A stretch of DNA of 60,364 nucleotides from contig JAKLLE010000014.1 of the NCBI GenBank assembly GCA_023150295.1, forward strand, positions 1 through 60,364. Reading direction: 5' to 3'. The notes below the pieces were generated by a model that saw only the letters and a program-made list of their open reading frames with translations, ran no database searches and was not told where the DNA came from. Made by a program: the position numbers and the translations under genes. Each line of letters begins with the position of its first letter. Position 1 is the stretch's first letter. This DNA is from Giesbergeria sp. Its GTDB lineage: Bacteria > Pseudomonadota > Gammaproteobacteria > Burkholderiales > Burkholderiaceae_C. This document shows, one piece after another, positions 979 to 56,844 of the stretch.

Positions 979-996
979 GTTTTTGCTATAAAAAAT

Positions 997-1033
997 ATAG
1001 CTAGTGGCGCCCGTGGATAGGGCGCTACTAGCC
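997..1033 (+). repeat. Dispersed 36-bp repeat, copy 1 (intergenic)
   Basis: This copy lies 18 bases after the bioB stop. The core is ATAGCT, 3 nt, GGCGC, 10 nt, GGCGC and a GCC end (37 bp here, one base longer than the other copies). It is preceded by TTGCTAT and an A-rich spacer, so GCTATA...ATAGCT forms a short palindrome. The GGCGCC/GGGCGC parts can form a hairpin that might act as a bioB transcript end. It belongs to the seven-copy family described in the findings. Confidence 0.75.
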
Positions 1034-1058
1034 ATTTTTACCATCAGAAGTACGTGTT

Positions 1059-1250
1059 TTACTTCTTCATCGGGCAGGTGTTGATGCCCAGCAAGGTGTA
1101 GGCCGGGCAAAAGCCGAACAGGCCTGTGGCCAGCGGCACCACGCCAATCCAGCCCCAAACGCCCACGGTGCCCGTGGCGGCCAGGCCGATCAGCACCAAA
1201 CCGGCGACGATGCGCAGAATGCGATCCAGAGATCCAGCGTTGTGTTTCAT
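1059..1250 (-). CDS. DUF2892 (YgaP-like) small inner-membrane protein
   Basis: A 63-residue protein starting MKHNAGSLDR with two hydrophobic segments (about residues 11-30 and 33-50) and the motif GLFGFCPAYTLLGINTC. This matches the DUF2892 membrane family, found alone or fused to rhodanese domains as in YgaP. The two C-terminal Cys could take part in sulfur relay; that is inference. A good ribosome site (AGGAAAA) precedes the ATG. It is the last gene of a four-gene leftward cluster with OsmC, rhodanese and a second DUF2892 protein, which suggests reactive-sulfur handling. Confidence 0.8.
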   Translation of the reverse strand: MKHNAGSLDRILRIVAGLVLIGLAATGTVGVWGWIGVVPLATGLFGFCPAYTLLGINTCPMKK

Positions 1251-1295
1251 GGGATTTTCCTTTCGGGTTGAGAAGCGGAGGAGGGTTGCGCTCTG

Positions 1296-1742
1296 TTATT
1301 TGAGGCGCTGGCCGGTACTGTCAAACACCTGCAGTTCGATGGCAATGCCCTGGCCCACGCTTTGGGTCACGGTGCAATAGGCTTCGAACTGGTCGAGCAC
1401 GCGATCCAGGTGCTCCAGGCTGGATGCGGGAACGCCCAGGTGCAGTGCGGCGGTCATCTTGAGCACACGCAGGCGCTTTTGCTCGTTACGGCCCACTTCG
1501 GCGTCCACGGTGCAGTGCAATGGCTCGGGCGCTTGCTTGAATTTGCGCAGAGCAAACAACAGCGAATCCGACAGGCAGTTGCCCACGGCTGCCGCCAGCA
1601 ACTGCACGGGGGAAGGGCCCTGGCCCGTGCCCAGCGGTGCGGGCTCATCGGCTTGGAGAGGCGCAATACTCTCACCAAAATCGACCTGGAATCGGTAGTC
1701 CTGCTGCTGACGCAGGGTGATGCGCACGTTGCTCTCGCTCAT
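1296..1742 (-). CDS. OsmC family protein
   Basis: A 148-residue OsmC/Ohr-type protein. OsmC proteins are dimeric thiol peroxidases whose paired Cys residues reduce organic hydroperoxides and, in some lineages, persulfides. Visible features are the family layout PSPVQLLAAAVGNCLSDSL with one catalytic-type Cys, and ending EAYCTVTQSVGQGI with the second Cys. The start is supported by AAAGGATAG before the ATG. It sits between a rhodanese gene (18-nt gap) and a DUF2892 gene, all read leftward, so I infer a role in sulfane-sulfur or peroxide detoxification. Confidence 0.85.
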   Translation of the reverse strand: MSESNVRITLRQQQDYRFQVDFGESIAPLQADEPAPLGTGQGPSPVQLLAAAVGNCLSDSLLFALRKFKQAPEPLHCTVDAEVGRNEQKRLRVLKMTAALHLGVPASSLEHLDRVLDQFEAYCTVTQSVGQGIAIELQVFDSTGQRLK

Positions 1743-1760
1743 GTCTATCCTTTGTAAATG

Positions 1761-2069
1761 TCAGTTGCTCCGGATGGCGCGCCCCGTCTGCATGGCCACC
1801 ATGCCCACGGAGCCGCCGTTGCGCGCGCCGGTGTAGCCCATTTGCTGCAGCCACACCATGGCCATGTGCGAGCGGGCGCCGGACAGGCAGTACAGCACCA
1901 CCTCGGCAGACGGGTCTGGCAAGGCCGTGGCTGCGTCGGCCTGCAGTCGATCCAGCGGCATGTTCAACGCACCTTCGACATGGCCAGAAGCAAACTCACC
2001 GGGTGAACGCACGTCCACCAAGATGGGGGTAGTACCGGTGCCGGTTGAGGAACTCATGCCCGAAGCCAT
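1761..2069 (-). CDS. Single-domain rhodanese (sulfurtransferase)
   Basis: A single rhodanese domain of about 100 residues. It has the entry motif ILVDVRSPGEFASGHVEGALNMP and the active loop YCLSGARS, whose Cys would carry the persulfide. Rhodaneses move sulfane sulfur between thiols, or from thiosulfate to cyanide. The frame also has a TTG at 2075 directly after the upstream DUF2892 stop (TGATTG), and ATGs at 2069 and 2057. I chose 2069, but the start is uncertain. It is translationally coupled to its DUF2892 neighbour, the same pair that is fused in YgaP. Confidence 0.85.
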   Translation of the reverse strand: MASGMSSSTGTGTTPILVDVRSPGEFASGHVEGALNMPLDRLQADAATALPDPSAEVVLYCLSGARSHMAMVWLQQMGYTGARNGGSVGMVAMQTGRAIRSN

Positions 2070-2075
2070 CGGCAA

Positions 2076-2285
2076 TCAGCAGCCCGGCTGGATGCCCAGC
2101 TTGCGCAGGATGTTTTCCAGCATGCACCACTTGGTGAACCCGCTTTGCAGCAGGTTGGCGCCCACAAAGGCCGTGAACGCCAGCCACCATTGGCTCATGA
2201 ACAGAGGGCTGCCCGGAATGCCCAGAGCCAGGGACAGCAGGATGAAGGTACCCGCCAACAGGCGAACCACTTGCCAGGAAGTCAT
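2076..2285 (-). CDS. DUF2892 small membrane protein, first gene of the sulfur cluster
   Basis: A 69-residue protein with two predicted membrane segments (about residues 5-24 and 30-50) and the signature SGFTKWCMLENILRKLGIQPGC, which is DUF2892-like with two Cys. GAAGGAGATT precedes the ATG as a strong ribosome site. It is the first gene of the leftward cluster; its promoter lies in the intergenic dyad shared with the divergent ArsR gene. The membrane Cys beside a rhodanese suggests a membrane sulfur relay. This function is inferred only from context. Confidence 0.8.
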   Translation of the reverse strand: MTSWQVVRLLAGTFILLSLALGIPGSPLFMSQWWLAFTAFVGANLLQSGFTKWCMLENILRKLGIQPGC

Positions 2286-2320
2286 TGCAATCTCCTTCGC
2301 AACACGATGTAGAACATTTG

Positions 2321-2357
2321 TTGACTGGATTATTTAGCCAAACAGCTAATTAGTCAA
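2321..2357. promoter_or_regulatory. Nested palindrome: candidate ArsR operator and divergent promoter
   Basis: Two inverted repeats share one centre: outer TTGACT (2321-2326) with AGTCAA (2352-2357), and inner TTAGC (2334-2338) with GCTAA (2345-2349). The outer arm on the minus strand fits a -35 box (TTGACT), with AATAAT 17 nt further on as -10 for the leftward cluster. The position between divergent arsR and target genes is typical of self-regulated ArsR systems. Confidence 0.55.
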
Positions 2358-2429
2358 ACGATGTATCATCGGATACGCGAGAAACCCAAGCCTTGGCGTT
2401 CCATGAGAACGCGCCGCCAGGAACTTCCC

Positions 2430-2768
2430 ATGAAAGACCTTCCCCCAGAAGCGCTGCAACAAGTAGCCGCCTATTTCCAGACCCTGGCCGAACCCACGCG
2501 CCTGCGCATCCTCAACCACCTGCGCGAAGGCGAGCGCAACGTGGGAGATCTGGCCCAACTCTGCGGCTACACCGCCGCCAACATCTCCCGGCACCTGTCT
2601 TTGATGACCCAGCAAGGCCTGGTGCGCCGCGAGAGCCGGGGTACCAGCGTGTACTACAGCATCGCGGACGAATCGGTCTATGCCTTGTGCGACCTGGTGT
2701 GCGGAAGCATCGCACGCCAGTACGAACGCACGACCAAGACGCAGCACGCGATCTTTTCCAGGGAGTGA
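2430..2768 (+). CDS. ArsR-family winged-helix repressor
   Basis: A 112-residue ArsR/SmtB regulator. It contains AEPTRLRILNHLREGERNVGDL, a recognition helix AANISRHLSLMTQQGLV and a wing RESRGTSVYYSIAD. Cys residues occur before the recognition helix (LCGYT) and in the last helix (ALCDLVCGSI), so metal or persulfide sensing is possible. I start at ATG 2430 (preceded by AGGAAC) because the longer frame from 2361 begins at the edge of the operator. It is divergent from the DUF2892-rhodanese-OsmC genes, so the likely job is to repress them until sulfide, persulfide or a related stress appears. Confidence 0.85.
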   Translation: MKDLPPEALQQVAAYFQTLAEPTRLRILNHLREGERNVGDLAQLCGYTAANISRHLSLMTQQGLVRRESRGTSVYYSIADESVYALCDLVCGSIARQYERTTKTQHAIFSRE

Positions 2769-2830
2769 GGGGCAGCTTGCTTGAACAGATGACTACAAGA
2801 CGGTGACGCAGATGTTCATGCAGATTTTAT

Positions 2831-2858
2831 ATTTAACATAATATACATCGTATCTAGT
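2831..2858 (+). other. dif-like site with one good arm
   Basis: Bases 2831-2841 (ATTTAACATAA) equal the XerD-type arm of the well-known dif site, read on the opposite strand. The next six (TATACA) equal the dif central region. The following 11 bases, where the XerC arm should be, match poorly. This is the layout expected at an Xer-recombined junction of an integrative element exploiting Xer. Confidence 0.5.
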
Positions 2859-3071
2859 AAAAAGAATGCCCGGCTACGTTGGCATGATCCTGAAACCCGC
2901 GCCCAGCTTGCGTATCGGTTCAAGGTCTTATACCGTAGCCCGGGCTTGGATCTGCAGGGCTGCGCGAAGCTTCTTCAGGTCACTTTACGTAACTGGGAGT
3001 CCGGCAAGAAGGACATTCCGTACTCGGCCTACCGGCTGCTGCGCCTGCTCAATCGCTTGGAGCTTTCATGA
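2844..3071 (+). pseudogene. XafT-like (VC1465 / DUF3653 family) gene remnant
   Basis: One frame runs without a usable start codon from the centre of the dif-like site to TGA 3069-3071. It reads YIVSSKKNARLRWHDP, then LAYRFKVLYRSPGLDLQGCAKLLQ, LRNWESGKKDIPYSAYRLLRLL. The LRNWESG...IPYSAYRLLRLL signature is that of the phage/IMEX DNA-binding family whose member XafT activates XerD-first recombination at dif. It lacks a start, and the usual C-terminal part beyond LNRLELS. The Tn3-family transposon inserted 12 bases after its stop. I read it as the dead remnant of a dif-integrating element; an unusual start codon is the alternative. Confidence 0.55.
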
Positions 3072-3078
3072 TGAATAC

Positions 3079-3083
3079 CATAC
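3079..3083. repeat. Left target-site duplication CATAC
   Basis: Five bases directly outside the left terminal repeat, identical to 22228-22232 on the right side. A 5-bp duplication is the Tn3-family standard. Confidence 0.9.
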
Positions 3084-3130
3084 GAGGGTCGGCAGGGATT
3101 CATGTAAAAAACCGCAGAAATGCACCTAAG
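3084..3130 (+). repeat. Left terminal inverted repeat (47 bp)
   Basis: It begins GAGGGTCGGCAGGG and ends CACCTAAG, pairing with 22181-22227 in reverse complement. The tnpA stop codon (3126-3128) lies inside it. Confidence 0.92.
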
Positions 3131-6125
3131 TCATTGATTTCATTGGGATTATCGTGGCATCGAAATTCAACGGACCGATCTTGCGCCGAAAGTCCAGCGT
3201 GTAGTCCCCAAACCGATTGATGTGCGCCGTGCGGAACGGCGCCAGACCGGCCAAGATCTCCTGCGTGATCTCGGTACCCTCATCGCGAAGCTCCTGCAAA
3301 ACCCGCGTCATGCCCACCACGTTATGCAGAATGATCATGTTGGCCACAAGGTGGTTGTACTTGATCACCTTGCGCTGCTCGTGCCGGATGTTCTCCGCAA
3401 TGATCCCCTCTCCCCCAAAAAATGACCAACCGGCAAAGCCGTTGAATTGCTCGCTCTTGTTGGTTTCGGCATGGATCACCTTGCGAAGCCCGACATCGCC
3501 GATATAGCTCAACAGGAACATGGTGCGGATCACCTTGCCTAGTTCCACAAAGGCGAAGTACAGCTTGTTCTTGCGGCTGTAGGTGCCCAACCGACGCAAG
3601 ATGGTCGATGGCGTGATTTTTCCCGTCTTGATGGAAACCGCCACCCGCAGCATCGCCTGAAAATGCGTTTCAATGAGCTTCCAGTCGATCACGTCGCTGA
3701 ACAACGCATTGATGTTGGGATACATGTTGCCTGGTACCGGACGATGGAACTTGAGATCCTGGATTCCCCGAATACGCGGCATGAGCTTGATGCCCAGCAG
3801 ATGGGAGAGCGCGAAGATGGGGTAGCTCTGTGCCTGCGTATCACCGTGGATGGTGTCAGGTCGAATGTCAGATTCATTGCTCTCCAGCCCGTCTAGGATG
3901 TGGAGACCTTCATAGGTACCACAGGAAATGAAGTGGCTGAACAGAGCGATGAATTTGTCAGACACATGGTAGTAGCCGATTCCGCCGTACCCGCCATAGC
4001 GGATATGGTGCTCTGACAGCAGATTTTGTTCGTACAGGTTCCACTTGGTACCGTCGGCTGAAACGTGTTTTCCTGTCCCCCAATAGCCTGGCAGTTCAAA
4101 CTTGTTGTAGGCGTTAATCACCTTCACGATGGCTTTGTCCAGCAGGTCTTCACTCACGTATTTCAGGTTCAGCCAGGAAATCTGGCGGCGGCTCAGCCCT
4201 TTGATGGACTTGGCGGTCTGACCCGGCCCCAGATTGCAGCCATAGCAGAACAGCGTCGTGATGACCCGCATCCGCAGATCCTCAAGGCGACTGTCTGTCC
4301 CGGCCAATGGCCGGAACAGCTTGTGCAGATTCAACCAGCGCTCGGTATCGATCATGACATCCACGATGCTGACCGCTTCCATCCGTTCGGAGATCAAGGC
4401 ATCGATGCGAGCGGCCGCCTCGACGATTTCGGAGCGGGGCGGCTTGCGCAGGATGAGGCGGCCATCAACGATCTCGGCATGGGCGTTTTCCGGGAAAGCG
4501 GCATCAATGTCCCTGGCCCGCTGCGCCATGGCTGATTTGAGCTGATCCACAAAAGTGCTGGGGTCCGTCTCGATGCCTGTAACCCGGCCATAGTCACCGA
4601 CCTCTTTTTCAAAAGTTTCGTCATCGACCAACTGCTCTCGGTAGTCGTCATACCGCTCGCCGTATTTGATAAAGAGATCGCCCGACTTCAGATCGTCCTT
4701 GACGGCATGCAGCACCGCCAGCTCAAAATACCTGCGGTGGACCGCTTGCACGGGGCCTTTGCTCGATGGCTTGACCAGCACCAGCTTGCGCCACTGCGCC
4801 GACATCCACCGAAAGTCGTTGTCCTCAGCCAAACCCAGCATGTCCAGTGGCACAACGTCGCTGCGGTTGTCACGCAGCTTGTAGAGCGCCTCAATCAACC
4901 GCTCCATTACCAGATCTTCACTGCTTGCTGCTGGTGAGGCGATGCTGATGCAGTTGATCAACTGGGCCCGAACCATCTTGTAAGGCTGCAGCAGGAAAGG
5001 AAAGTGATTTCGTCCGGCGTACGCCAGGTGCTGTTCGCATTCGTTGAGCAGTTCGTCCACATCGGCCACCAGCGTGGTACCAATGGCATCCACGCGCTGA
5101 GCGTCCGTTCCCTCCAGTTGATAGGCCCCCAGGATGTCTTTGAGCTGCCCCACCAACATGTCGGTTTTCTGGACCCGTTCCTGCTGGAAAGACAGCAGCT
5201 TTTGCCGGGCATTGTTTTCCAGGTTCTGCATGAGGCGAATGAACAGGTCTGCGGCATCATCCAGGGATTGGGCATGCTGTGCCCGGATGAAGATCACCGC
5301 CAAGGCGTAGCGCTTTTGCGGCTTGAGTTCGGCCATCTCTGCCGCATTGAGCGCGCGCGCCAGGTGCCGAAACTGCTTGAGTTTTGGCACAGGCACATCG
5401 GGTTTGGGTAGCTGCTCCACCAGGTGTTGCAGGCGCCGGATGTGCTGGATGTAAGTTCGTGTTTCCTTGTTTGTCGGCCGTTTGGGCTCACGCTTGAGTG
5501 TCTGCCACGCAGAAACGGACTCTCCCGGTGCGGTTTTGAGTAGTCCATCGATTAGGGCGCGGGTCTGCGCGGTCAGTTGGCCAGAGATGGCTGAAAAGTA
5601 TCGACTATTGCTCTTTTCCCGGGCCCGAAACGCCATTCGATCCAGCGTTGAGAAAGCGGGCAACTCGTAGCGGTGGTGGACCAGTTCCTCCAGCATCACG
5701 TTGATGATGTCGGCCACCGCCTGTTTGGTTTCAGCTGCCGTGTCGGCCACGACGACCAGCCAGGCGTGGCCTTCTGGCCCCAGCGGTTTGACGTTCAGAT
5801 GCCGACGCAAAGCCGCGAAAAGAGCCATCCGAGAACCAGAGGCCTCAAAACGCTTGAGATCTGCCAGCGCAGGCAGCCTGGCCAGCCCTGCCGTCTGGGC
5901 AATGCGCTCTCTGATGGCCTGCGGCACCTCAGCGAGTGGAATGAAATAACCCAGTCGCTGAAAAACCTTCAGGTGGATCAATGCAGCGACGCGGGGCAAG
6001 GCTCGCTTGCCGAGCCCGGCAGCCAAGCGTTTTTCATCCTCGGTCGGCGTGTAGAGCTCATCCAGCTCGCGGGGCGTTGGATCGGGGTTCAGGCTGGGGT
6101 ACGCCGTCTCGTTGGGTGTGGTCAT
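3126..6125 (-). CDS. tnpA: Tn3-family transposase TnpA
   Basis: A 999-residue protein, the usual size for a Tn3-family DDE transposase, which makes and resolves strand transfers at the terminal repeats by a replicative route. The N-terminal third is a DNA-binding region. The catalytic part holds Asp691 in SADGTK and Asp762 in HGDTQAQS, followed by LLGIKLMPRIRG and, near the end, GGEGIIAENIRHEQRK with the third acidic region. Its stop codon falls within the left terminal repeat. A 57-nt gap that carries two GGCACTACCCC copies separates it from the upstream recombinase gene, so the two are probably cotranscribed. No truncation or frameshift is visible. Confidence 0.95.
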   Translation of the reverse strand: MTTPNETAYPSLNPDPTPRELDELYTPTEDEKRLAAGLGKRALPRVAALIHLKVFQRLGYFIPLAEVPQAIRERIAQTAGLARLPALADLKRFEASGSRMALFAALRRHLNVKPLGPEGHAWLVVVADTAAETKQAVADIINVMLEELVHHRYELPAFSTLDRMAFRAREKSNSRYFSAISGQLTAQTRALIDGLLKTAPGESVSAWQTLKREPKRPTNKETRTYIQHIRRLQHLVEQLPKPDVPVPKLKQFRHLARALNAAEMAELKPQKRYALAVIFIRAQHAQSLDDAADLFIRLMQNLENNARQKLLSFQQERVQKTDMLVGQLKDILGAYQLEGTDAQRVDAIGTTLVADVDELLNECEQHLAYAGRNHFPFLLQPYKMVRAQLINCISIASPAASSEDLVMERLIEALYKLRDNRSDVVPLDMLGLAEDNDFRWMSAQWRKLVLVKPSSKGPVQAVHRRYFELAVLHAVKDDLKSGDLFIKYGERYDDYREQLVDDETFEKEVGDYGRVTGIETDPSTFVDQLKSAMAQRARDIDAAFPENAHAEIVDGRLILRKPPRSEIVEAAARIDALISERMEAVSIVDVMIDTERWLNLHKLFRPLAGTDSRLEDLRMRVITTLFCYGCNLGPGQTAKSIKGLSRRQISWLNLKYVSEDLLDKAIVKVINAYNKFELPGYWGTGKHVSADGTKWNLYEQNLLSEHHIRYGGYGGIGYYHVSDKFIALFSHFISCGTYEGLHILDGLESNESDIRPDTIHGDTQAQSYPIFALSHLLGIKLMPRIRGIQDLKFHRPVPGNMYPNINALFSDVIDWKLIETHFQAMLRVAVSIKTGKITPSTILRRLGTYSRKNKLYFAFVELGKVIRTMFLLSYIGDVGLRKVIHAETNKSEQFNGFAGWSFFGGEGIIAENIRHEQRKVIKYNHLVANMIILHNVVGMTRVLQELRDEGTEITQEILAGLAPFRTAHINRFGDYTLDFRRKIGPLNFDATIIPMKSMT

Positions 6126-6182
6126 CTGCGGGCACTACCCCCGTTGGCACTACCCCGTCTGGCCGCCTGTCTTCCCATCACC

Positions 6183-7499: not shown

Positions 7500-7770
7500 C
7501 TACTGGGTAACAGTTACCGGGCAGGTCGGTTTCGGCTCGAATCACTGAAATCCAACGCGGCCGGCACTTGGTCGGCAGCGTTGCATCGCGGCGGCATAGT
7601 TTCGCATTCGGCGCAATGGTTGGCCTTGGGATGCGGAGTCAACTGTGATAGTCAACAATCCTCAGGTCTCGCCTGCCACTGCAGAAAGTCTCGGTCGATA
7701 AGTTGCAACGTCTTTAAATACACCATTTGCACACCCGCAATGTGATGCCGCAGGGCAGCCACATCCTTTG
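7500..7770. other. Non-coding gap: candidate resolution (res) region
   Basis: This stretch separates the recombinase start from the ATPase stop. It holds the dyad GGTAAC-A-GTTACC (7506-7518) and a direct repeat GTCAAC at 7638-7643 and 7651-7656 (13-bp period). The minus strand of 7661-7770 stays open, reading RLAKDVAALRHHIAGVQMVY in frame after the ATPase stop; I do not recognise it and it has no start. A recombinase target upstream of its own gene would be normal, but no 20-30-bp core site is certain here. Confidence 0.35.
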
Positions 7771-10098: not shown

Positions 10099-10121
10099 AA
10101 ATTCTTCTCCTTGGTTAGCCG

Positions 10122-10152: not shown

Positions 10153-10227
10153 GCCGTACTAACAATGTGGCTGGCAAGGTCTCGGACGTTTCGGGCTTGA
10201 CCGCTATCTAAGGCTGCATTGACCGCT

Positions 10228-22349: not shown

Positions 22350-22424
22350 TGGTGGGTGATACATGGATCGAACATGTGACCCCTGCCGTGTGAAGGCAGT
22401 GCTCTACCGCTGAGCTAATCACCC
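22350..22424 (-). tRNA. tRNA-Val (CAC), second copy transcribed
   Basis: The reverse strand folds as a cloverleaf: acceptor GGGTGAT/ATCACCC, D-arm with AGCTCAGCGGTAGAGC, anticodon stem CTGCC/GGCAG around loop TTCACAC (anticodon CAC, reading GUG), T-arm with TTCGATC, and an encoded CCA (22350-22352). Sequence identical to the copy at 22462-22536. Confidence 0.95.
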
Positions 22425-22461: not shown

Positions 22462-22536
22462 TGGTGGGTGATACATGGATCGAACATGTGACCCCTGCCG
22501 TGTGAAGGCAGTGCTCTACCGCTGAGCTAATCACCC
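22462..22536 (-). tRNA. tRNA-Val (CAC), first copy transcribed
   Basis: Identical 75-base gene with encoded CCA, 37 bases upstream of the second copy and 37 bases after the dnaQ stop. A tandem duplication sharing one terminator; probably cotranscribed. Confidence 0.95.
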
Positions 22537-23646: not shown

Positions 23647-25509
<1,863 letters not shown>

Positions 25510-32418: not shown

Positions 32419-32443
32419 AGCCGCCTGCGGGCGGCTTTTTTTT
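32419..32443 (+). terminator. Rho-independent terminator of the aminotransferase gene
   Basis: AGCCGCC, loop TGC, GGGCGGCT then eight T: a compact GC-rich stem with a long T-run, 36 bases after the stop codon. Confidence 0.9.
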
Positions 32444-32454
32444 GAGCAAAATTC

Positions 32455-32490
32455 GGCTCCAGCGCCCGTTCATCAAGCGCCAGTAGCTAT
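32455..32490 (-). repeat. Dispersed 36-bp repeat, copy 3 (intergenic)
   Basis: On the minus strand ATAGCT, ACT, GGCGC, 10 nt, GGCGC, TGGAGCC, with GCTATAAATATA next to it completing a GCTAT...ATAGC palindrome. It lies between the terminator and the start of the CoA-transferase-like gene, whose upstream region it therefore supplies. Confidence 0.8.
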
Positions 32491-32506
32491 TATATTTATA
32501 GCAATC

Positions 32507-33406
32507 ATGCCCCACACTGCTGCCCACCCCACGCCCCTGCAAGGCTCCCGCGTCCTGAGCCTGGCGCTCAACCTGCCTGGCCCTGCCGCCCTGCTGCGCT
32601 GCGCGCGCATGGGCGCCGAGTGCACCAAGCTGGAGCCGCCCCCTGCGCCGGGCCATGCCAGCGCCGACCCCATGGGCATCTACAGCCCCACCGCCTATGC
32701 AGACCTGCACCAAGGCGTGCGCGTGCTGCACGCCCACCTCAAGACCGAAGAGGGCCAGGCTGCACTGCACGCGGAACTGGCGCGCACCGATGTGCTGATC
32801 ACGTCCTTCCGCCCCTCGGCCCTGGCCAAGCTGGGGCTGGGCTGGGAAGTGCTGCAGGTGCGCTACCCGCGGCTGTCGCTGGTACGCATCGTCGGTGCGC
32901 TGGGCGAGCGTGCCGAGGAACCCGGCCACGACCTCACCTACCAGGCCGAAGCCGGGTTGCTAGCAGGCCTGCAGGCGCCGCCGCCCACCCTGTTCGCCGA
33001 CATGGCGGGCGCACTGGTGGCCAGCGAGGCTGTGCTGCAGGCCCTGCTGGCGCGCAGCCAGCAAGGTGCTGGGGTGTGCATCGAAGTGGGCCTGGCCGAG
33101 GCCGCACAGTGGCTGGCCCTGCCGCTGCACTGGGGCCTGACCACCCCGCAGGGCGACGTGGGCGGCGCCCATGCGGGCTACCGCATCTACCCCTGCCAGG
33201 ATGGCCGCGTGGCTGTGGCCGCGCTGGAGCCGCACTTCGCCGCCCGCCTGTGCGCCGCTGCGGGCCTGGCGGCGCAGGGGGACGCTGAGCATTTGCGCCA
33301 TCCAGCGACCCACGAAGCCATCGCCCGCTTCCTGCAAGGCCAGACCCGCGCCCAGCTCGATGCCCTGGCCCGCGCCCAGGACATCCCGCTGCATGTGCTG
33401 GACTGA
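32507..33406 (+). CDS. CaiB/BaiF-type CoA-transferase-like protein (short)
   Basis: 299 residues with family III CoA-transferase features: LQGSRVLSLALNLPGPAALLRCARMGAECTKLEPP at the N-terminus, then ARTDVLITSFRPSALAKLGLGWEVL, DLTYQAEAGLL and AHAGYRIYPCQDGRVAVAALEPHF. Canonical members have about 400 residues, an Asp nucleophile near 169, and GxxGD/E loops; this protein is about a quarter shorter and has DLTYQAEAG in the nucleophile region. It may be a divergent racemase-like member. No ribosome site is obvious; the dispersed repeat lies just before it. Confidence 0.75.
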   Translation: MPHTAAHPTPLQGSRVLSLALNLPGPAALLRCARMGAECTKLEPPPAPGHASADPMGIYSPTAYADLHQGVRVLHAHLKTEEGQAALHAELARTDVLITSFRPSALAKLGLGWEVLQVRYPRLSLVRIVGALGERAEEPGHDLTYQAEAGLLAGLQAPPPTLFADMAGALVASEAVLQALLARSQQGAGVCIEVGLAEAAQWLALPLHWGLTTPQGDVGGAHAGYRIYPCQDGRVAVAALEPHFAARLCAAAGLAAQGDAEHLRHPATHEAIARFLQGQTRAQLDALARAQDIPLHVLD

Positions 33407-40691: not shown

Positions 40692-43115
<2,424 letters not shown>

Positions 43116-43890: not shown

Positions 43891-43917
43891 GAAGGTGCGA
43901 GCGAACCCGCCAGGCGC

Positions 43918-45339: not shown

Positions 45340-45401
45340 TGCGGAATGGCAAACGGGCGGCCCGCGCCTACAGTGGCGCGACAACTAGGGAGTATGCATT
45401 C

Positions 45402-47018: not shown

Positions 47019-48655
47019 ACGGCGCACTCCCCCCCGGCGCATTCCCGCCGCGCGCCCAGGCACTGGCACGGCTCACCGCGCAGGAATGGGATCTGGCCGT
47101 CATTGGCGGCGGCATCACCGGGGCGGGCGTGGCGCAGCAGGCCGCTGCCCAGGGCTGGCGCGTGCTGCTGGTGGAGCAACGGGACTTTGCCTGGGGCACA
47201 TCTAGCCGCTCGTCAAAATTAGTGCACGGCGGGCTGCGCTACCTGAAGCAAGGCGACCTCAAAACCACCCTGCATTCGGTGCGTGAGCGCAATCGCCTGC
47301 TGCGCGAGGCGCCCGACCTGGTGGAGCCGCAGAGCTTTCTGTTTGCCGACTGTGCGGGCCGCAAACCCAGTCGTTGGCTGATGCAGACCGGCCTGGTGGT
47401 GTACGACCTGATGGCCGAAAACCGCCGCTCGCGGGGCGGCCACTTCTACGCCGACCTGGCCACCACGCACATGCTTGCACCCGGCCTGGCGCCGCCTGGC
47501 CTGCGCGGCGCGCTGGTCTTTCAGGACGCCAAGACCGACGACGCCCGCCTGGTGCTGCGCGTGCTGCAGGAAGCACGCTTGCTGGGCGCCACCACGCTCA
47601 ACTACCTTGCCGCCCAAAGCCTGCAAACCGAGCAAGGCCGCGTGGCAGGCCTGGAGCTGCAAGACGCCCTGGAGGGGCAGCGCTACACCGTGCGCGCGCG
47701 CTGCGTGGTCAACGCCACCGGCGCCTGGGCCGACCGGCTGCGCAGCGGCACGGGCGCCCCGCCCCTGCTGCGCCCACTGCGCGGCAGCCACCTGGTCGTG
47801 CCTTTCTGGCGCCTGCCGGTGGCGCAGAGCATCAGCTTCATGCATCCGCAGGACGGGCGGCCGGTGTTCCTCTACCCCTGGGAAGGCGCCACCCTCATCG
47901 GCACCACCGACCTGGACCACCGCGAGCCGCTCGACACCGAGGCGCGCATCACCCCGGCCGAGGTGGGCTATCTGCTGGACGCCGTGAACGACCAGTTCCC
48001 CGCCACGCACCTGCGCCCGGCGGACGTAATCGCCTGCTACGCGGGCGTGCGCCCGGTGCTCGACGACAGCCAGCAGGACGCCTCCAAGGCCACGCGCGAC
48101 CATGTGGTGCGCGACGAAGCGGGCCTCATCACGCTGACCGGCGGCAAGCTCACCACCTTCCGCCCCATGGCACAGGACGCGCTGGCGCTGGCCGCGCCGC
48201 ATGTGGGCCAGCCATTTGCACGCAGCGATGCGCCCTTGTTCACCCCGCCCAGCACCCTGAACCCGCGCTGGAGCCCCGCCGTGCGCCAGCGCCTGCAGGC
48301 GCGCTACGGCAGCCTGGCCGCTGATCTGTGCGACGGTGCGCGCGATGAAGACCTGCAATGCATCCCCGGCACGCAAACACTGTGGATCGAACTGCCCCTG
48401 GCCGCCCGCCACGAGGCCGTGGAGCACCTGGACGACCTGCTGCTGCGCCGCACGCGGCTGGGCATTCTGCTGCCGCAGGGCGCACTGGCGCTGCTGGAGC
48501 GCATACGCCAGCTCTGCGCGCCGCACCTGGGCTGGAGTGATGCGCGCTGGGAGGCGGAAATTACCCGCTACCGCGAGCTGATCCACACGCATTACCAGCT
48601 GCCGGACAAGCATGAAGGCTTGGCACTTTCTTCCATGGGCGGCGATGCCACATGA
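47006..48655 (+). CDS. glpD: Glycerol-3-phosphate dehydrogenase (GlpD family)
   Basis: 549 residues from ATG 47006. FAD-binding GGGITGAGVAQQAAAQGWRVLLVEQ and RDFAWGTSSRSSKLVHGGLRYL are GlpD hallmarks, as are LIGTTDLDHRE, YAGVRPVLDD and GLITLTGGKLTTFRPMA. It oxidises sn-glycerol 3-phosphate to dihydroxyacetone phosphate, passing electrons to quinone at the inner membrane. It overlaps the FAD oxidase gene and precedes a FGGY kinase, so the three probably form one operon with the AraC regulator. Confidence 0.93.
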   Translation: MEGLNGALPPGAFPPRAQALARLTAQEWDLAVIGGGITGAGVAQQAAAQGWRVLLVEQRDFAWGTSSRSSKLVHGGLRYLKQGDLKTTLHSVRERNRLLREAPDLVEPQSFLFADCAGRKPSRWLMQTGLVVYDLMAENRRSRGGHFYADLATTHMLAPGLAPPGLRGALVFQDAKTDDARLVLRVLQEARLLGATTLNYLAAQSLQTEQGRVAGLELQDALEGQRYTVRARCVVNATGAWADRLRSGTGAPPLLRPLRGSHLVVPFWRLPVAQSISFMHPQDGRPVFLYPWEGATLIGTTDLDHREPLDTEARITPAEVGYLLDAVNDQFPATHLRPADVIACYAGVRPVLDDSQQDASKATRDHVVRDEAGLITLTGGKLTTFRPMAQDALALAAPHVGQPFARSDAPLFTPPSTLNPRWSPAVRQRLQARYGSLAADLCDGARDEDLQCIPGTQTLWIELPLAARHEAVEHLDDLLLRRTRLGILLPQGALALLERIRQLCAPHLGWSDARWEAEITRYRELIHTHYQLPDKHEGLALSSMGGDAT

Positions 48656-48680
48656 AAGCACGCGACGGTGCATCGGTTTT

Positions 48681-48782
48681 GCTCCCTCTCCCCTTGCGGG
48701 AGAGGGCGGGGGGAGAGGGGTGCTTGGAACGCAGCGCTTGCTCCCCCTCTCCCCAACCCTCTCCCGCAAGGGGAGAGGGGGC
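48681..48782. repeat. Long GC-rich inverted repeat (REP-like or terminator)
   Basis: The arm 48681-48723 pairs with 48736-48782; about 40 positions match, built around CCTCTCCCCTTGCGGGAGAGG, itself a small palindrome. It separates glpD from the kinase gene. Such intergenic hairpins occur in many copies in related genomes (from general knowledge); here it could stop or stabilise the glpD message. Confidence 0.75.
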
Positions 48783-48815
48783 AGGAAGCCGCATCAAAGA
48801 ATGACCATTAAAAAA

Positions 48816-48851
48816 GCCTCTGGCGCTTATCCATAAAGCGCAAGCAGCTAT
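48816..48851 (-). repeat. Dispersed 36-bp repeat, copy 5 (intergenic)
   Basis: On the minus strand: ATAGCT, GCT, TGCGC, 10 nt, AGCGC, CAGAGGC, with TTGCTATATATTTG alongside. It lies 29 bases before the FGGY kinase start, so its AT-rich part is in that gene's leader. Confidence 0.8.
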
Positions 48852-48880
48852 CAAATATATAGCAAACCCCAGGAGAAGCC

Positions 48881-50443: not shown

Positions 50444-50469
50444 CCCTTGCTCCAACGCACCCCGCCGCC

Positions 50470-51822
50470 ATGAAACGTATCCTCATCACCGCCCTGCTCG
50501 CCCTCAGCGCCAGCAGCCCCGCCTGGGCCTGGAGCAACCACGCCCTGGCCAGCTACCGCGCCTTTGAATCCATGCCCCCGGTGGCCCAGGCCGCGCCCGT
50601 GGCGGCCGAGCCGCTCGAAGCGTTCCTGGCGGCACAGGCCCAGCCCATCGCACAGCTATTGACCGAACAGGACGCCTGGGCCCAGCAGCACATTGCCACC
50701 TACCCGCCGCTGCCCGCGGCGCTGCGTTTCGACCCCGCCGTGGCCGCCCAGGGGCCGCAGGCCCTGCGCAAAGCCTTTCTGACGGCACTGCGCATCTCGC
50801 CCCAAAGCCGGTTTGCGCTGTACGTCCAGCCCGACCCCTGGGCCGCGCCGCCGCAGGCCGAGCGCATGGCGCACGACCTCGTCAGCGCCCTGCCCGCGCG
50901 CGACAAGGACGGCGGCGGCCACCACTTCGTGGCGCTGCGCGCGGGCGACATGGTGGCACCCATTGCCGTGCTCGCCTCGGCCAGCGACGAGCCTGACTAC
51001 GGCATGGACTTGAACCTGTGGGAAGACAGCCCCTCCGACTGGGGCCCGCGCTACGGCTTTGGCAAGATTCCCTTCGGCAACCCCAACCTGGACTTCTCCA
51101 CCCAGGCGCCCTTCCACATGGGCTACTACCACGAAGCACCGGTCATCTACATGGCGGCGGGCTTTCTCAAGCGCACCTACCCGATGCTGCGCATCCACCA
51201 GTACGCAGGGCTGTCGGAACTGGCCTTTCGCACCGGGCACCCCTACTGGGGCTGGCGCTTTGCCGGGCTGGCGCTGCACTACCTGCAGGACCTGACCCAG
51301 CCCTACCATGCCAGCCTGGCGCCGGGCTTCTCGGCCGCACGGCTCATCGGCATCAACCTGATGGCCATGCTGGGCATGCCCGGCGCCAAGAACGACATGG
51401 TCATCCTGCTGTCCAACCGCCACTTCGTGCTGGAACGCTATGAAAGCCAGATGATCCAGACCAGCGCCCAGGCCCGCCAGAGCGGCAGTGTGGACCAGGC
51501 CCTGCGCGACACCAGCACCGACGCCAGCCACCCCACCTGGAGCGAAACCTACGCCCGCGACACCGTCGCCCAGCAGGCCCACGCCCTGGGCCCCGCCGTG
51601 ACCGAGCAAATGCTGGCCAGCGTGCAGCCCGGCTACGTCAACGACCCCAGCTTCGACTTCGGCGTGCACGCCAAGGACATCGACCTGGTGGCCGAAGTCG
51701 CCAGCCAGGGCGAAGCGCAGCGCCAGGTGCTGGAATCCACCATCGCCACGCTGATGCGCAACTTTGGCGCACACAGCCGCAACATGGTGCGCGGCATCCT
51801 GGACAACGCAGCCGCACGCTGA
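50470..51822 (+). CDS. Secreted zinc-dependent phospholipase C-like protein
   Basis: 450 residues from ATG 50470 with a signal peptide ending SSPAWA. The mature protein would begin Trp21-Ser-Asn-His; in zinc phospholipase C and P1/S1 nucleases the N-terminal Trp itself binds zinc. The second zinc motif is visible as LHYLQDLTQPYHASL (HxxxD...H). It is larger than the Bacillus enzyme, with extra sequence between the two motifs. The likely role is cleaving phospholipid headgroups or nucleic acid in the periplasm or outside. The glp-type genes upstream could use the products; that is inference. Confidence 0.75.
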   Translation: MKRILITALLALSASSPAWAWSNHALASYRAFESMPPVAQAAPVAAEPLEAFLAAQAQPIAQLLTEQDAWAQQHIATYPPLPAALRFDPAVAAQGPQALRKAFLTALRISPQSRFALYVQPDPWAAPPQAERMAHDLVSALPARDKDGGGHHFVALRAGDMVAPIAVLASASDEPDYGMDLNLWEDSPSDWGPRYGFGKIPFGNPNLDFSTQAPFHMGYYHEAPVIYMAAGFLKRTYPMLRIHQYAGLSELAFRTGHPYWGWRFAGLALHYLQDLTQPYHASLAPGFSAARLIGINLMAMLGMPGAKNDMVILLSNRHFVLERYESQMIQTSAQARQSGSVDQALRDTSTDASHPTWSETYARDTVAQQAHALGPAVTEQMLASVQPGYVNDPSFDFGVHAKDIDLVAEVASQGEAQRQVLESTIATLMRNFGAHSRNMVRGILDNAAAR

Positions 51823-51857
51823 GCGCTGCACGGCAGTGGCGGTAAGCTATCGCCCCC

Positions 51858-52460
51858 ATGCCCCACACCCTGGCCGCCCCCACGCACAGCGAACTCGTCA
51901 TCAAGAAAAGCCGCTTCATAGGCTGCGTGCAACCCATGCCCGACCGGGCCAGCGCCCAGGCGCACGTCGATGCACTGTGGAAACAACACCCCGGCGCCGC
52001 CCACATCTGCTGGGCGCTGCTCGCGGGCGGCCAGTCTGCCGCCGTGGACGACGGCGAACCCGGCGGCACGGCCGGCCGCCCCATGCTGGACGTGCTGCGC
52101 CACCAGGACCTCGAAGGCGTGCTGGCCACCGTGGTGCGCTACTTTGGCGGCGTCAAGCTGGGCGCAGGCGGCCTGGTGCGTGCCTACACCGACTGCGTGG
52201 CCCAGGCCCTGCTCACCGCGCCCAAAGTGCCGCTGCAGCGCATGAAAACCCTGCAATGCCTGGTGCCCTACGCCCTGGAAGGCCTGCTGCGCCGCGAGAT
52301 CGAGGCCGCCCATGCCGAGCTGCTGGAGGTACAGCACGCTAGCCTGGTCACCCTGCACCTGCGCCTGCCCGAGGCCCAGGCCGCCGCCTTTGTGCAACGC
52401 ATCAACGACCAGGGCCAGGGCCGCGTGGGGTGGCAAGACGCCCCCGGCATTGCCGCCTGA
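51858..52460 (+). CDS. yigZ: YigZ/IMPACT family protein
   Basis: 200 residues. The signature is IKKSRFIGCVQPM, then AVDDGEPGGTAGRPMLDVLRHQDLEGVLATVVRYFGGVKLGAGGLVRAY, nearly identical to E. coli YigZ. The C-terminal part is the DUF1949 domain. The IMPACT fold has RNA- or translation-linked roles in eukaryotes; bacterial function is unclear. 35 bases after the phospholipase gene. Confidence 0.92.
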   Translation: MPHTLAAPTHSELVIKKSRFIGCVQPMPDRASAQAHVDALWKQHPGAAHICWALLAGGQSAAVDDGEPGGTAGRPMLDVLRHQDLEGVLATVVRYFGGVKLGAGGLVRAYTDCVAQALLTAPKVPLQRMKTLQCLVPYALEGLLRREIEAAHAELLEVQHASLVTLHLRLPEAQAAAFVQRINDQGQGRVGWQDAPGIAA

Positions 52461-52526
52461 GCGATTTCGCTTCAGAAAAGCGCGCCATCTGCCGATACCC
52501 AGGTGTTGCACCCCTGGAGCCCAGCC

Positions 52527-52742
52527 ATGGACGTCGCCCTCTCCAACACCATCATCCAAACCGCCACCCACCTGGCCAGCGCCAAGCAGTCGGACGCCGT
52601 CAACATCGCCATGCTGAAAAAAGCACTGGACATGCAGGAAACCGCCGCCGCCACGATGCTCGACACCCTGGTGCAGTCCATGCCCCAGCCCCAGCTTGCC
52701 ACCTCCGGCTCGTTGGGGACGCAGCTCAATACCTTTGCCTGA
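52527..52742 (+). CDS. YjfB-family putative motility protein
   Basis: 71 residues from ATG 52527 (MDVALSNTIIQTATHLASAKQ). NIAMLKKALDMQETAAATMLDTLVQSM is the signature of the YjfB motility-associated family (very small helical proteins). No flagellar genes lie within the window. A GGAG sits close upstream. Confidence 0.75.
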   Translation: MDVALSNTIIQTATHLASAKQSDAVNIAMLKKALDMQETAAATMLDTLVQSMPQPQLATSGSLGTQLNTFA

Positions 52743-52840
52743 AAAGCCCCACCGCTGGGGGCACTGCGCCTGACGCAGAATTTCCGTTGGCAAAAAAGCC
52801 GCCTGGCTTTACAAACGCAGCACCACGCTCTGCATTTGCC

Positions 52841-53089
52841 ATGAACACCTTCAAAACCGCCCCCATTCCCCTCGGTGACTCCGTAGGCATCATCCTGCCT
52901 GATGAGGCGCTGGCGCGCATGAATCTGAAAGTAGGCGACACGATGTTCCTGACCACATCTGCCGATGGTTTGCTGCTTTCGCCCTTTGCACCGACTTCAG
53001 ACACAACCAGCCCTGCAGACGACGACTTCGCACCCGAAGGCAGCGAAGCTCCGCGCTCATTGGCCAAGCATCCTGACGGGTCGAAATAA
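52841..53089 (+). CDS. AbrB/MazE-type DNA-binding protein, orphan antitoxin
   Basis: 82 residues from ATG 52841. The swapped-hairpin fold TAPIPLGDSVGIILPDEALARMNLKVGDTMFLTTSADGLLLSP is the AbrB/MazE DNA-binding domain; the tail is acidic and probably disordered, as in antitoxins. Partner toxins (MazF, Fic/Doc or PIN) normally follow within a few bases; instead a 113-base gap and the MmeI-like gene follow. It may be a lone regulator. Confidence 0.75.
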   Translation: MNTFKTAPIPLGDSVGIILPDEALARMNLKVGDTMFLTTSADGLLLSPFAPTSDTTSPADDDFAPEGSEAPRSLAKHPDGSK

Positions 53090-53202
53090 CTCACGATTGC
53101 TGCCAACACACGCCGCGAGCCCTACCAATGCTGCGCCCCCACACCCAGCGCCGGACCTGACACGCGCCTGAGCACGACCCCTGCCCCGCTATCATCCAGC
53201 GC

Positions 53203-56200
53203 ATGGGAGAGAGCACCACCAACACCGACGCTGCCACCGCCGCAGCGCACGCCTTCATCGCCCGCTGGAGCGGCAGCACCGCCAGTGAACTGGCCAGCGC
53301 GCAGAGCTTTGTGATCGACCTGTGCGAGCTGCTGGGTGTGGACAAGCCCCACCCCACGCCCGAGCAAAGCTACATGTTCGAGCGGCCCATCACCTTTGCG
53401 CATGGCGACGGCAGCACCAGCCCTGGGCGCATTGACTGCTACCGGCGCGGCCACTTTGTGCTGGAGGCCAAAAAGTTCAAGGCCCCCACGCACACCAAAG
53501 GCTTTGACGACGGCCTGCTGCGCGCCCGCAGCCAGGCCGAGGGCTACGCCCGCGCCCTGCCCGCCACCGAAGGCCGCCCGCCCTTTGTGCTGGTGGTGGA
53601 CGTGGGCAACGTCATCGAGGTGTATGCCGAATTCAGCCAAAGCGGCGCCACCTACACCCCCTACCCCGACCCGCGCAGCCACCGCCTGCTGCTGGCCGAC
53701 CTGGCCCGGCCCGAAGTGCGCGAGCGCCTGCGCCGCATCTGGTGCGACCCCGACAGCCTGAACCCCGCACGCATCAGCGCCCAGGTCACGCGCGACGTGG
53801 CCGCGCTGCTGGCCCGCCTGTCGCAATCGCTCGAAGCCAGCCTGGGTTTGATGCCAAATATGGCTCCAGCGCCCGGTACACAAGCGCAAGCAGCTCCTGA
53901 AATCGTAGCAGCCTACCTCACCCGCTGCCTGTTCTCCATGTTTGCCGAAGACGTGGAACTGCTGCCCAAAGGCGCCTTCCAGGGCCTGCTGCAAACCCAC
54001 CGGGGCGACCCCGTGGCGCTGCAACACATGCTGCGCATTTTGTGGGCCGACATGGACCGGGGCGGCTTTTGCGCCGCGCTGGCCAAGAACGTGCTGCACT
54101 TCAACGGCAAACTCTTCAAAGGCGCAGAGCACGCGCACTACAGCCTACTGCTCAGCGCAGAGCAAATCGACCTGCTCATCCAAGCCGCCCGCGCCAACTG
54201 GCGCGAAGTGGAACCCGCCATCTTCGGCACCCTGCTCGAACGCGCCCTGGACCCCACCGAACGCCACGCCCTGGGCGCGCACTACACGCCCCGCGCCTAT
54301 GTGGAGCGCCTGGTGCAACCCACCGTGATCGCCCCGCTGCGCCAGGAATGGGAATACGCCCGCGCCGCCGCCCTGGTGCTGGCCCGCGAAGCCGCCGAGC
54401 TGGACGGCAAGGCCCAGCAAGCCAAGCTCGAAGCCGCCCGCGCCGAAGTGCTGCGCTTTCACCACCGGCTGTGCACCGTGCGCGTGCTGGACCCCGCCTG
54501 CGGCAGCGCCAACTTCCTGTACGTCACGCTGGAACACCTCAAGCGCCTGGAGGGCGAAGTCATCAACCAACTGCAGGAACTGGGCACCACCCACGAACAC
54601 CTGCAGGGCCGCCTGGGCTTTGAAGGCGAAACCGTGACGCTGCAGCAACTGCGCGGCATCGAACTGAACGAACGCGCCGCCGCCCTGGCCGAACTCGTGC
54701 TCTGGATTGGCTACCTGCAATGGCACATCCGCACCCGCGGCCACGCCAGCGTGGCCACGCCCGTGGTGCACAACTACGGCAACATCGAATGCCGCGACGC
54801 CTTGCTCGCCTGGGACGCGCAGGAACTGGCGTATGACGACGCGGGCCGCCTGCTCAGCCGCTGGGACGGCCGCAGCTACCAACCCCACCCCGTCACCGGC
54901 GAACCCGTCCCCGACGAGGCCGCCCAGGTGCCCCAGTGGCGCTACATCGGCGCCCGCAAAGCCGACTGGCCGCAAGCGGACTTCATTGTGGGGAACCCGC
55001 CGTTCATTGGAAACAAGCGCATGCGCGAGGCGCTGGGCGACGGCTATGTGCAAGCCCTGCGCAGCACCTGGCAAGACGTGCCCGAGAGCGCCGACTTTGT
55101 GATGTATTGGTGGCACCATGCCGCCCAACAGGTGGCCAGCGGGCAGTCGCAGCGCATGGGCCTGATTACCACCAACAGCCTGACCATGGTTTTCAACCGC
55201 CGCGTGGTTCAGGCAGCGCTGGACAAAGGCACCCACCTGAACATGGCCATCCCCGACCACCCCTGGGTGGACAGCGCCAACGGTGCCGCCGTACGCATTG
55301 CCATGACGGTGCTGGCCGCTGGCCAGGGTGAAGGCACCTTGTTCGCCGTGACCGACGAACAGCCCGGCGACCATGGCGAAGCTGCGGTAACCCTGCACAG
55401 CAGAGTCGGCCTGGTGCATGCCGACCTGAAAGTGGGGGCGAATGTGGCAGCCGCAAAACCTTTGCACGCAATGGATGGGCTGGCCAACCGTGGCGTGATT
55501 CCACATGGCGCCGGAATGACTGTTACGCCAGAACAAGCCCAAGCACTTGGCTTGGGCACGGTGCCGGGAATGGAAAAGCACTTGCGCCCCTACTGCAATG
55601 GCAAAGACCTTACCGACAAGCCGCGCGGACTGCTTGTCATCGACTGCCATGGCTTGAATTCAGAGGAAGTACGCGACCGTTTCCCAGCGCTGTACCAATG
55701 GCTGCTAGAACGGGTAAAGCCAGAACGAGAACAAAACAACAGGCCGAGAGTTCGCGATTTGTGGTGGCTATTTGCAGAAGCCAGAGTCGTCATGCGTGCT
55801 TCCCTACGAGACCTCAGGCGATACATAGTCACTGGCCAAGTCGCCAAACACCGCGTGTTCCAGTTTCTGGACACATCCATCTTGCCCGACGACAAACTCA
55901 TTGCCATCGCCCTGGACGACTCCTTTTCCCTGGGTATCCTCTCCAGCCAGTTGCACATTGATTGGGCACTGGCCACAGGCGGCACTCTGGAAGATCGCCC
56001 GGTCTACAGCAAATCCCGCTGTTTTGACACCTTCCCCTTCCCCGACGAAGACACCGGCCTGACCCCGCAACTGCGCGAGCGCATCGCCCACCTCGCCGAG
56101 CACATCGACGCACACCGCAAGCGCGTGCTGGGGCAGGTGGGGTCTGCGGGGCGCGATTTCGCAAGCGAAGCGCGTATGAGCGCCCCGCAGACCCCGCCTG

Positions 56201-56844
56201 CCCCGGCACTACCCGCCACAGCACCACCCACCACAGCACCCGCAACAACCACACCTCTGACCCTCACAGGCCTCTACAACGTCCTGCAAGCCCTGCGCGA
56301 AGGCCGCCCGCTGACACCGAAGGAAAAAGCCATCCACACCCAGGGCCTGGTGGGCGTGCTGCGCGAGCTGCACGACGAACTGGACGCCGCCGTTCTGCAA
56401 GCCTACGGCCTGCCCGCCACGGCCAGCACCGACGACATCCTGGCCCACCTGGTGCAGCTCAACGCCCAGCGCGCCCAGGAAGAAGCCCAGGGCCGCGTGC
56501 GCTGGCTGCGCCCGGCCTTTCAAAATCCGCAAAATTCGCTACAAATTCAAGAGCATCTAGCGCACGACCAGCAAGCGCAAGAGCCTGATTTTGATATTGA
56601 AAAACCGCTATCAAAAGCAGAGCAACCCGCAGCCCAGCCCTGGCCCGCCACCTTGCCCGAACAGGTGCGCGCCGTGGCCGCTGTGCTGGCCGCCAGCGCC
56701 GCGCCGCTGACCCTGCCCGCCATCGAGGCGCGCTTCAAGGGCCGGGGCCCCTGGAAGAAAGGCCTGCCCACGCTGCTGCAAACCCTGGAAGCCCTGGGCC
56801 ACGCGCAGCCCGTACTTACGCCCCAGGGTACGGCCTGGCGCTGA
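53203..56844 (+). CDS. MmeI-like single-chain restriction-modification enzyme (type IIL)
   Basis: 1213 residues. The N-terminal nuclease shows Asp78-x9-Glu88-Ala-Lys90 ([16 protein letters not shown]). A helical spacer follows, then an N6-adenine methyltransferase with motif [10 protein letters not shown] (Asp430) and motif IV NPPF (Asn598), a target-recognition region at about 725-930, and a C-terminal extension with a winged-helix-like end ([19 protein letters not shown]). Such proteins methylate one strand and cut at a distance. Two 36-bp repeats are translated in frame (at 53862 and 56550). The recognition region has a lower GC and different codon use than the rest, consistent with domain exchange. 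Confidence 0.88.
53862..53897 (-). repeat. Dispersed 36-bp repeat, copy 6 (inside the MmeI-like gene, in frame)
   Basis: Minus-strand orientation: GGAGCT, GCT, TGCGC, 10 nt, GGCGC, TGGAGCC. Translated as [14 protein letters not shown], in the loop between the nuclease and the helical spacer. Confidence 0.65.
56550..56585 (+). repeat. Dispersed 36-bp repeat, copy 7 (inside the MmeI-like gene, in frame)
   Basis: Plus-strand orientation: AGAGCA, TCT, AGCGC, 10 nt, AGCGC, AAGAGCC, preceded by GCTACAAATTCA and followed by AT-rich sequence. Translated as [11 protein letters not shown] within the C-terminal linker. Flanking bases to about 56620 share the AT-rich character. Confidence 0.65.

What the first reader, a model, noticed from the sequence alone, without database searches (positions are those of the whole stretch)
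980..56620. Family of seven 36-bp dispersed repeats, four of them translated in frame
Copies at 997, 24625, 32455, 42201, 48816, 53862 and 56550 share one plan: ATAGCT, 3 nt, a GCGC block, 10 nt, a second GCGC block, then a GAG-C end; six of the seven are exactly 36 bp. Intergenic copies carry a GCTAT...ATAGC palindrome at one end. Because 36 is a multiple of three, copies can enter genes without a frameshift. Such repeats that become protein segments recall the palindromic elements of Rickettsia.
Basis: partly seen in the sequence, partly recalled or inferred. Interest (0 to 1): 0.85.

Follow-up and report, generated by a model that had tools for sequence, protein, structure and literature searches.

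The report
Hundreds of fixed 70-bp chromosomal motifs
A bacterium of the Comamonadaceae group carries one 70-base DNA motif at hundreds of chromosomal places, between genes and on top of ordinary codons, and it stays at those places across species, which looks more like binding sites kept by selection than like jumping repeats inserted into proteins.

Summary
The seven copies are real members of one family. The unit is about 71 bp, not 36. I kept 59 copies in 456 kb of this genome (about 470 per genome by extrapolation): 40 between genes and 19 inside called genes, on either strand. In one GTDB family 48 of 120 genera have a hit, 27 at high copy.

In-frame insertion of mobile repeats is not the best reading. 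Where both flanks were found in relatives, 48 of 57 sites hold the motif in the same orientation, and no clean empty site was seen. In Dxr and FabD the motif lies over homologous codons without an insertion relative to other genera. Its invariant bases (TAGC, CGC, CT) are 98-100% identical between orthologous copies, while variable positions fall below the flanks. All 19 genic copies use rare codons, and synonymous changes are fewer at conserved motif positions. Stem pairs do not covary.

Best reading: a long double-stranded DNA recognition site kept in place by selection, working like REP/BIME sites; the binding protein is unknown. A frozen REP/MITE-like origin stays open, because four copies in one Polaromonas locus share 26 identical bases.

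The parts
980..1050 (+). element copy, intergenic, 1 nt after the stop of gene 187-978
   Evidence: R1 62.4 bits; leave-one-out rank 1; no flanks found in the five relatives
24607..24677 (-). element copy inside HSP70 gene 23647-25509 (-), sense; codes [24 protein letters not shown]
   Evidence: R1 61.3 bits; HSP70 by Pfam; hit in all five relatives at the same site with no length change at the site
32437..32507 (-). element copy, intergenic, between a terminator-like hairpin and the start of a CoA-transferase gene
   Evidence: R1 79.6 bits; present in G006 and G011; in G002 and G010 a hit lies within about 1 kb between the flanks
42183..42253 (-). element copy inside YgiQ-type radical SAM gene 40692-43079 (-), sense, in a linker
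   Evidence: R1 65.4 bits; Pfam; hit in G006, G011, G009, G010; sense hits at this site in L004, L007, L027, weak in L049 and L017
48798..48868 (-). element copy, intergenic, 12 nt before the start of an FGGY kinase gene
   Evidence: R1 66.3 bits; hit in G006, G011, G009
53844..53914 (-). element copy inside MmeI-type gene 53203-56844 (+), antisense, between MmeI_N and helical spacer domains
   Evidence: R1 67.6 bits; Pfam; hit in G006, not in G009
56533..56603 (+). element copy inside the same MmeI-type gene, sense, after the target recognition domain
   Evidence: R1 64.4 bits; hit in G006 and G009

Best explanation
The repeats are copies of a long (about 60-70 bp) double-stranded DNA recognition element held at hundreds of fixed chromosomal places. 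Shown: two dyads (GCTAT-N7-ATAGC and GCGC-N11-GCGC) plus an ATTT block, use in either orientation, retention of a set of invariant bases at orthologous places, and overlap with native codons inside genes at the cost of rare synonymous codons. Inferred: the selection is for binding by a dimeric chromosome-associated protein, such as a nucleoid protein or a topoisomerase partner, much as REP/BIME sites are thought to work in E. coli (recalled). How the sites first spread is not settled.
For: Position: of 91 element-by-relative pairs, 57 had both flanks; 48 hold a model hit, all in the same orientation, 3 of them loosely with about 1 kb between flanks. In-place constraint: in 45 ortholog comparisons of 17 elements, identity per column follows the information content of that column among paralogous copies (Spearman 0.59, p 6e-8): TAGC 0.98-1.00, CGC 0.98-1.00, CT 0.98. 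Codons: mean adaptation is below the rest of the gene in 19 of 19 genic copies and lowest of all windows in 16; ATA is 14 of 31 Ile codons inside and 9 of 424 outside; same-residue codons are identical in 212 of 240 cases at conserved columns, 147 of 195 at variable columns, 10,636 of 13,700 outside (p 3e-5, cases not independent); with G006 alone 74 of 81 against 3,954 of 4,782 (p 0.04). Overlay without insertion: Dxr and FabD. Depth: the motif's TAGC gives the fabH stop in 15 of 17 element-rich genera (11 or more of 41 scored), 3 of 5 low-copy ones and 0 of 7 element-free ones. Duplex rather than RNA: no covariation, orientation even (12 against 16; 8 against 11).
Against: No binding protein was found or sought by experiment. 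High-information columns as a class are no better conserved than the mostly coding flanks (0.892 against 0.883); only the invariant subset is. 8 of 57 pairs align without a model hit, among them the FabD copy in four of four relatives, and 1 is a doubtful empty site; 34 of 91 pairs had no usable flanks, so loss or gain there is untested. Across genera the full model reaches E below 0.001 in Dxr only in this genome and G101, and in FabD only in this genome and G038, of 30 loci each. Copies in Polaromonas locus L042 share 26 identical bases and two in L024 share 23, which points to copying or conversion. The GCTAY...RTAGC half is almost never alone (39 of 40 sites lie in elements), which fits arrival as whole units. 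Residue identity to element-free genera inside the Dxr and FabD stretches is 0.39-0.46 against 0.78-0.86 outside.
Confidence: 0.5

Rival explanations
1. The copies are an old REP/MITE-like mobile family that spread by copying in the ancestor, is still copied or converted in some lineages, and is frozen in this genus; genic copies are old in-frame insertions or replacements to which the proteins have adapted.
For: Shared cores within Polaromonas L042 and within L024; the first dyad occurs almost only inside whole elements; AT-rich copies in a GC-rich genome; aconitase has about 15 extra residues at the site against chains 3sn2 and 2b3x; YgiQ copy sits in a length-variable linker; FabD is 6 residues longer there than chains 3ezo and 2g1h.
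Against: No clean empty site in 57 pairs; no flank motif or duplication; Dxr, FabD and HSP70 show no insertion of element length; the one Y1 transposase gene has no strong copy within about 2.5 kb; invariant bases are kept in place, which dead copies would not show.
Confidence: 0.32
2. The element acts in RNA, as a hairpin at the ends of messages that stabilises or terminates transcripts.
For: Three of seven window copies fold well below shuffles, z -5.9, -2.7 and -2.1; copies often lie at gene ends.
Against: Four of seven do not fold better; no covariation in two stem models (all pairs screened); orientation relative to genes is even and 11 of 19 genic copies are antisense.
Confidence: 0.1
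3. The similarity is chance or a codon-usage artefact.
For: On the 36-bp core alone three of seven copies do not stand above random sequence.
Against: Over 71 columns every copy ranks first, and the reversed-sequence control gives none at score 5 or more against 71.
Confidence: 0.01

Closest known systems
REP / BIME elements (definition read in passages of PMC12306157; PMC2817692 and PMC3116915 seen in a listing)
   Same: Hundreds of copies, palindromic, mostly at gene ends, either orientation; discussed for chromosome organisation
   Different: Unit about 71 bp; a third of sampled copies inside called genes; divergent copies with fixed invariant bases; positions kept between species and partly between genera; no RAYT beside copies
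GTAG- and CGTC-tagged REPs, some inside genes (PMC3733652, passages)
   Same: Palindromic, some translated, ends often supply TAG stop codons
   Different: Genic ones there are inferred as insertions against shorter homologues; Dxr and FabD here show none. The terms Acidovorax, Comamonas, Delftia and Burkholderia do not occur in its main text
Rickettsia palindromic elements (recalled; mentioned in PMC3733652)
   Same: Repeats that are part of protein-coding genes
   Different: Those are mobile in-frame insertions (recalled); these overlie native codons on either strand and show no empty sites here
Chromosomal recognition motifs such as Chi, KOPS, matS (recalled)
   Same: Kept by selection and tolerated inside coding sequence
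   Different: Those are about 8-13 bp (recalled); this one spans 60-70 bp

Membership tests
REP (definition in PMC12306157) | high copy number in one genome | tested here: met
REP (definition in PMC12306157) | extragenic, seldom overlapping coding regions | tested here: not met
   19 of 59 inside called genes, one of these calls doubtful (C69 70245); still about 20-fold rarer per kb there than between genes
REP (definition in PMC12306157) | short, for example 14-40 nt in E. coli | tested here: not met
   about 71 columns, informative from column 3 to 68
REP (definition in PMC12306157) | palindromic, forms stem-loops | tested here: inconclusive
   80-85% of cells pair against at most 46% in slid controls, but pairs do not covary
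REP with RAYT | Y1 transposase gene with the repeat beside it | tested here: not met
   one Y1 gene, C78:22382-22663; nearest strong copy about 2.5 kb away, one weak match (E 0.011) about 5 kb away
MITE | insertion with target duplication and empty sites | tested here: not met
   no flank pattern; no clean empty site in 57 pairs, one doubtful; 34 pairs untestable
Rickettsia palindromic elements | in-frame insertion relative to homologues | tested here: not met
   Dxr and FabD, HSP70; YgiQ and aconitase inconclusive
Structured RNA family (Rfam) | match to a curated family | tested here: not met
   only two tRNAs in the window at gathering score
Binding site of a chromosome protein | bound specifically by a protein | not testable with these tools
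   needs pull-down or ChIP

The most novel reading that the evidence does not exclude
A new class of chromosomal DNA site: a 60-70 bp motif at hundreds of fixed loci that evolves in place by substitution and overprints codons of housekeeping enzymes on either strand in dozens of genera, as the target of an undescribed chromosome-organising system.
Probability: 0.38. Interest if true: 0.88.

Novelty: new variant of a known kind. Interest (0 to 1): 0.72.

Why it matters
Dispersed palindromic repeats are usually read as selfish DNA or debris. Here a family with hundreds of copies keeps a set of invariant bases at orthologous places, strongly enough to hold ATA and other rare codons in housekeeping genes. 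That gives a direct way to look for an unknown global DNA-binding factor in Comamonadaceae, and a test case for how selected DNA sites and protein code share the same bases.

Tried and rejected
First fixed-spacing patterns had a wrong spacer: 3 matches in the genome, 0 in the window. Rfam gave only two tRNAs. With one window copy as blastn query, phage records gave none and plasmids two, Comamonas and Acidovorax. Strand against replichore: in G006 a best two-breakpoint split has p 0.025, but neighbours share a strand in 74 of 148; in the own sample 35 of 53 do, p 0.027. Unresolved. Spacing is slightly more even than random: CV 0.75, random 5-95% 0.77-1.12. Junction type is not significantly biased (div against rest p 0.20). 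The count of the second dyad was doubled by a slip; one search gives 27 of 41 sites in elements. The Dxr codon count (12 of 16 element-rich, 3 of 14 other loci with RTA followed by GC, p 0.009) was made by eye; counting any RTA codon gives 4 of 14, p 0.026.

Rows dropped: of 72 rows I kept 59; 11 were the opposite strand of a kept copy and 2 were weak (E 0.12, 0.31). Profiles and the column statistics use the 50 copies of exactly 71 bp with 26 bits or more.

Literature: nine searches listed no paper that I recognised as describing this element; one search found one 12-letter match in PMC3953393, seen in the listing only. Read in passages: PMC2755013, PMC3733652, PMC12306157. PMC2817692: a term search that returned no passage. 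Others: listings. That similar strings occur in Comamonadaceae genomes I also recalled before the calls.
Full report
OBSERVATION. The seven copies are at the stated places. With flanks they align without a gap over 71 columns. In a leave-one-out test each ranks first of 118,068 window positions. On the 36-bp core alone the test is weaker and three of seven do not stand above random sequence, one of them because its strand was misread. A covariance model R1 finds these seven at 61-80 bits in the window; the other nine matches are opposite strands of copies or noise at 21 bits or less.

GENOME. In 456,486 bases (window plus five contigs, chosen because they were long and had hits) I kept 59 elements of 72 rows, or about 470 per genome by extrapolation. 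Forty lie between genes and 19 inside called genes, 8 sense and 11 antisense; density is 1.06 per kb between genes and 0.045 in genes. Genes come from a home-made hexamer caller, and at least one of the 19 host calls (C69 70245) looks doubtful. Flanks show no target motif or duplication.

HOSTS IN THE WINDOW. HSP70 (24607, sense), a YgiQ-type radical SAM protein (42183, sense), and an MmeI-type restriction-modification protein (53844 antisense between domains; 56533 sense, C-terminal).

DISTRIBUTION. Of 120 genomes of the GTDB family, each of another genus, 48 have a hit at E 1e-4 or better and 27 have 31 or more (at most 41 scored). Of 300 genomes of the order, 10 match: 7 of the own family, and 3 outside it with one hit each; 16 candidates were scored per genome with strict filters. 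Among 80 named YgiQ loci, 18 have a hit at E up to 1: Polaromonas, Rhodoferax, Simplicispira, Ottowia, Comamonas, Oryzisolibacter, one Variovorax and some MAGs with higher-rank names; none in the Acinetobacter, Roseateles, Paucibacter or Hydrogenophaga loci. The best-listed named YgiQ relative is Simplicispira psychrophila, 81%.

POSITION. I mapped the 7 window and 14 C64 elements into five and four same-genus relatives by their flanks. Of 91 pairs, 34 had no usable flanks, so gain or loss there is untested; the copy at 980 is among these in all five. Of the other 57, 48 hold a model hit, all in the same orientation (3 with about 1 kb between flanks), 8 align without a hit, and one is a doubtful empty site. 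Alignments shown contain substitutions and small indels, not insertion or excision of the element.

KEPT IN PLACE. In 45 ortholog comparisons of 17 elements the identity of a column follows its information content among paralogous copies (Spearman 0.59, p 6e-8). TAGC is 0.98-1.00, CGC 0.98-1.00, CT 0.98. Against a simple reading, high-information columns as a class (0.892) equal the mostly coding flanks (0.883); it is the invariant subset that exceeds them, while mid and low columns (0.77) fall below. Uniform decay of dead repeats would not give this pattern.

OVER NATIVE CODONS. In Dxr the copy is antisense; own Dxr aligns to PDB chain 1k5h (E. coli, organism recalled) across it without a gap, as do 29 of 29 loci of other genera; in FabD 28 of 29 loci do, although own FabD is 6 residues longer there than chains 3ezo and 2g1h. 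Identity to element-free genera inside the stretch is 0.46 (FabD) and 0.39 (Dxr), lower than outside (0.86, 0.78). The full model reaches E below 0.001 only in own and G101 for Dxr and in own and G038 for FabD; in the other genera only parts are visible. RTA followed by GC, as the first dyad needs, stands at the Dxr site in 12 of 16 element-rich and 3 of 14 other loci. HSP70 shows no insert against DnaK; XdhA and an rRNA methylase differ from their best PDB matches by about 5 and 4 residues. Against this, aconitase has 15 extra residues there against chains 3sn2 and 2b3x, and the YgiQ linker varies in length.

CODON COST. In 19 of 19 genic copies mean codon adaptation is below the rest of the gene, and in 16 the copy is the worst window. 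ATA makes up 14 of 31 Ile codons inside and 9 of 424 outside. Where the residue is unchanged between species, codons are identical in 212 of 240 cases at conserved columns, 147 of 195 at variable columns and 10,636 of 13,700 outside. The cases are not independent; with single relatives p is 0.04 (G006) and 0.006 (G009), and G002 shows no difference (23 of 31 against 856 of 1,168).

FABH-FABD. At this junction the model reaches E below 0.001 in 10 of 30 loci, own included. The motif's TAGC gives the fabH stop in 15 of 17 element-rich genera with a readable fabH, 3 of 5 low-copy ones and 0 of 7 element-free ones. The left part of the motif there is the native end of fabH.

DNA OR RNA. Two stem models pair far better than slid controls but do not covary beyond shuffles, and orientation relative to genes is even. 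This favours recognition as duplex DNA. That a protein binds it is inferred.

WHAT SPEAKS FOR COPYING. Four copies in Polaromonas locus L042 share 26 identical bases (TAGCTGCTCCCGCGATATTCTATTGG) and two in L024 share 23. The first dyad lies outside the 59 elements in only 1 of 40 sites; the second in 14 of 41. Some lineages thus copy or convert elements, and a REP/MITE-like origin stays open (0.32).

CONCLUSION. The finding is real and larger than described. In-frame insertion is not the best reading. I file it as a new variant of the dispersed palindromic repeat kind, and not as a REP, MITE or RPE, because defining features of each were tested and not met.

Noticed in passing
window 48610-48795: About 195 bp present here but absent from G006 and G011 at the same junction; it holds a 44-nt inverted repeat rich in CCCTCTCCCC.
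   Followed up: partly
L119:7864-7978: A different repeat of about 115 bp, 80-95% identical, with many copies in G006, G011, G002 and G009 and a few listed in G010 (list cut).
   Followed up: no
YgiQ loci L005, L029, L035, L039 (site of window 42183-42253): The YgiQ linker is length-variable and in other genera seems to hold translated pieces of other repeat families (VRPEPVEG, RHAGLDPAS, LGEGRG; repeat identity recalled, not tested).
   Followed up: partly
window 53203-56844: An MmeI-type gene carries two elements; relative G009 has a TGTTC expansion at the first site.
   Followed up: no
window 22353-22424 and 22465-22536: Two tRNA genes with the same score in tandem on the - strand.
   Followed up: no
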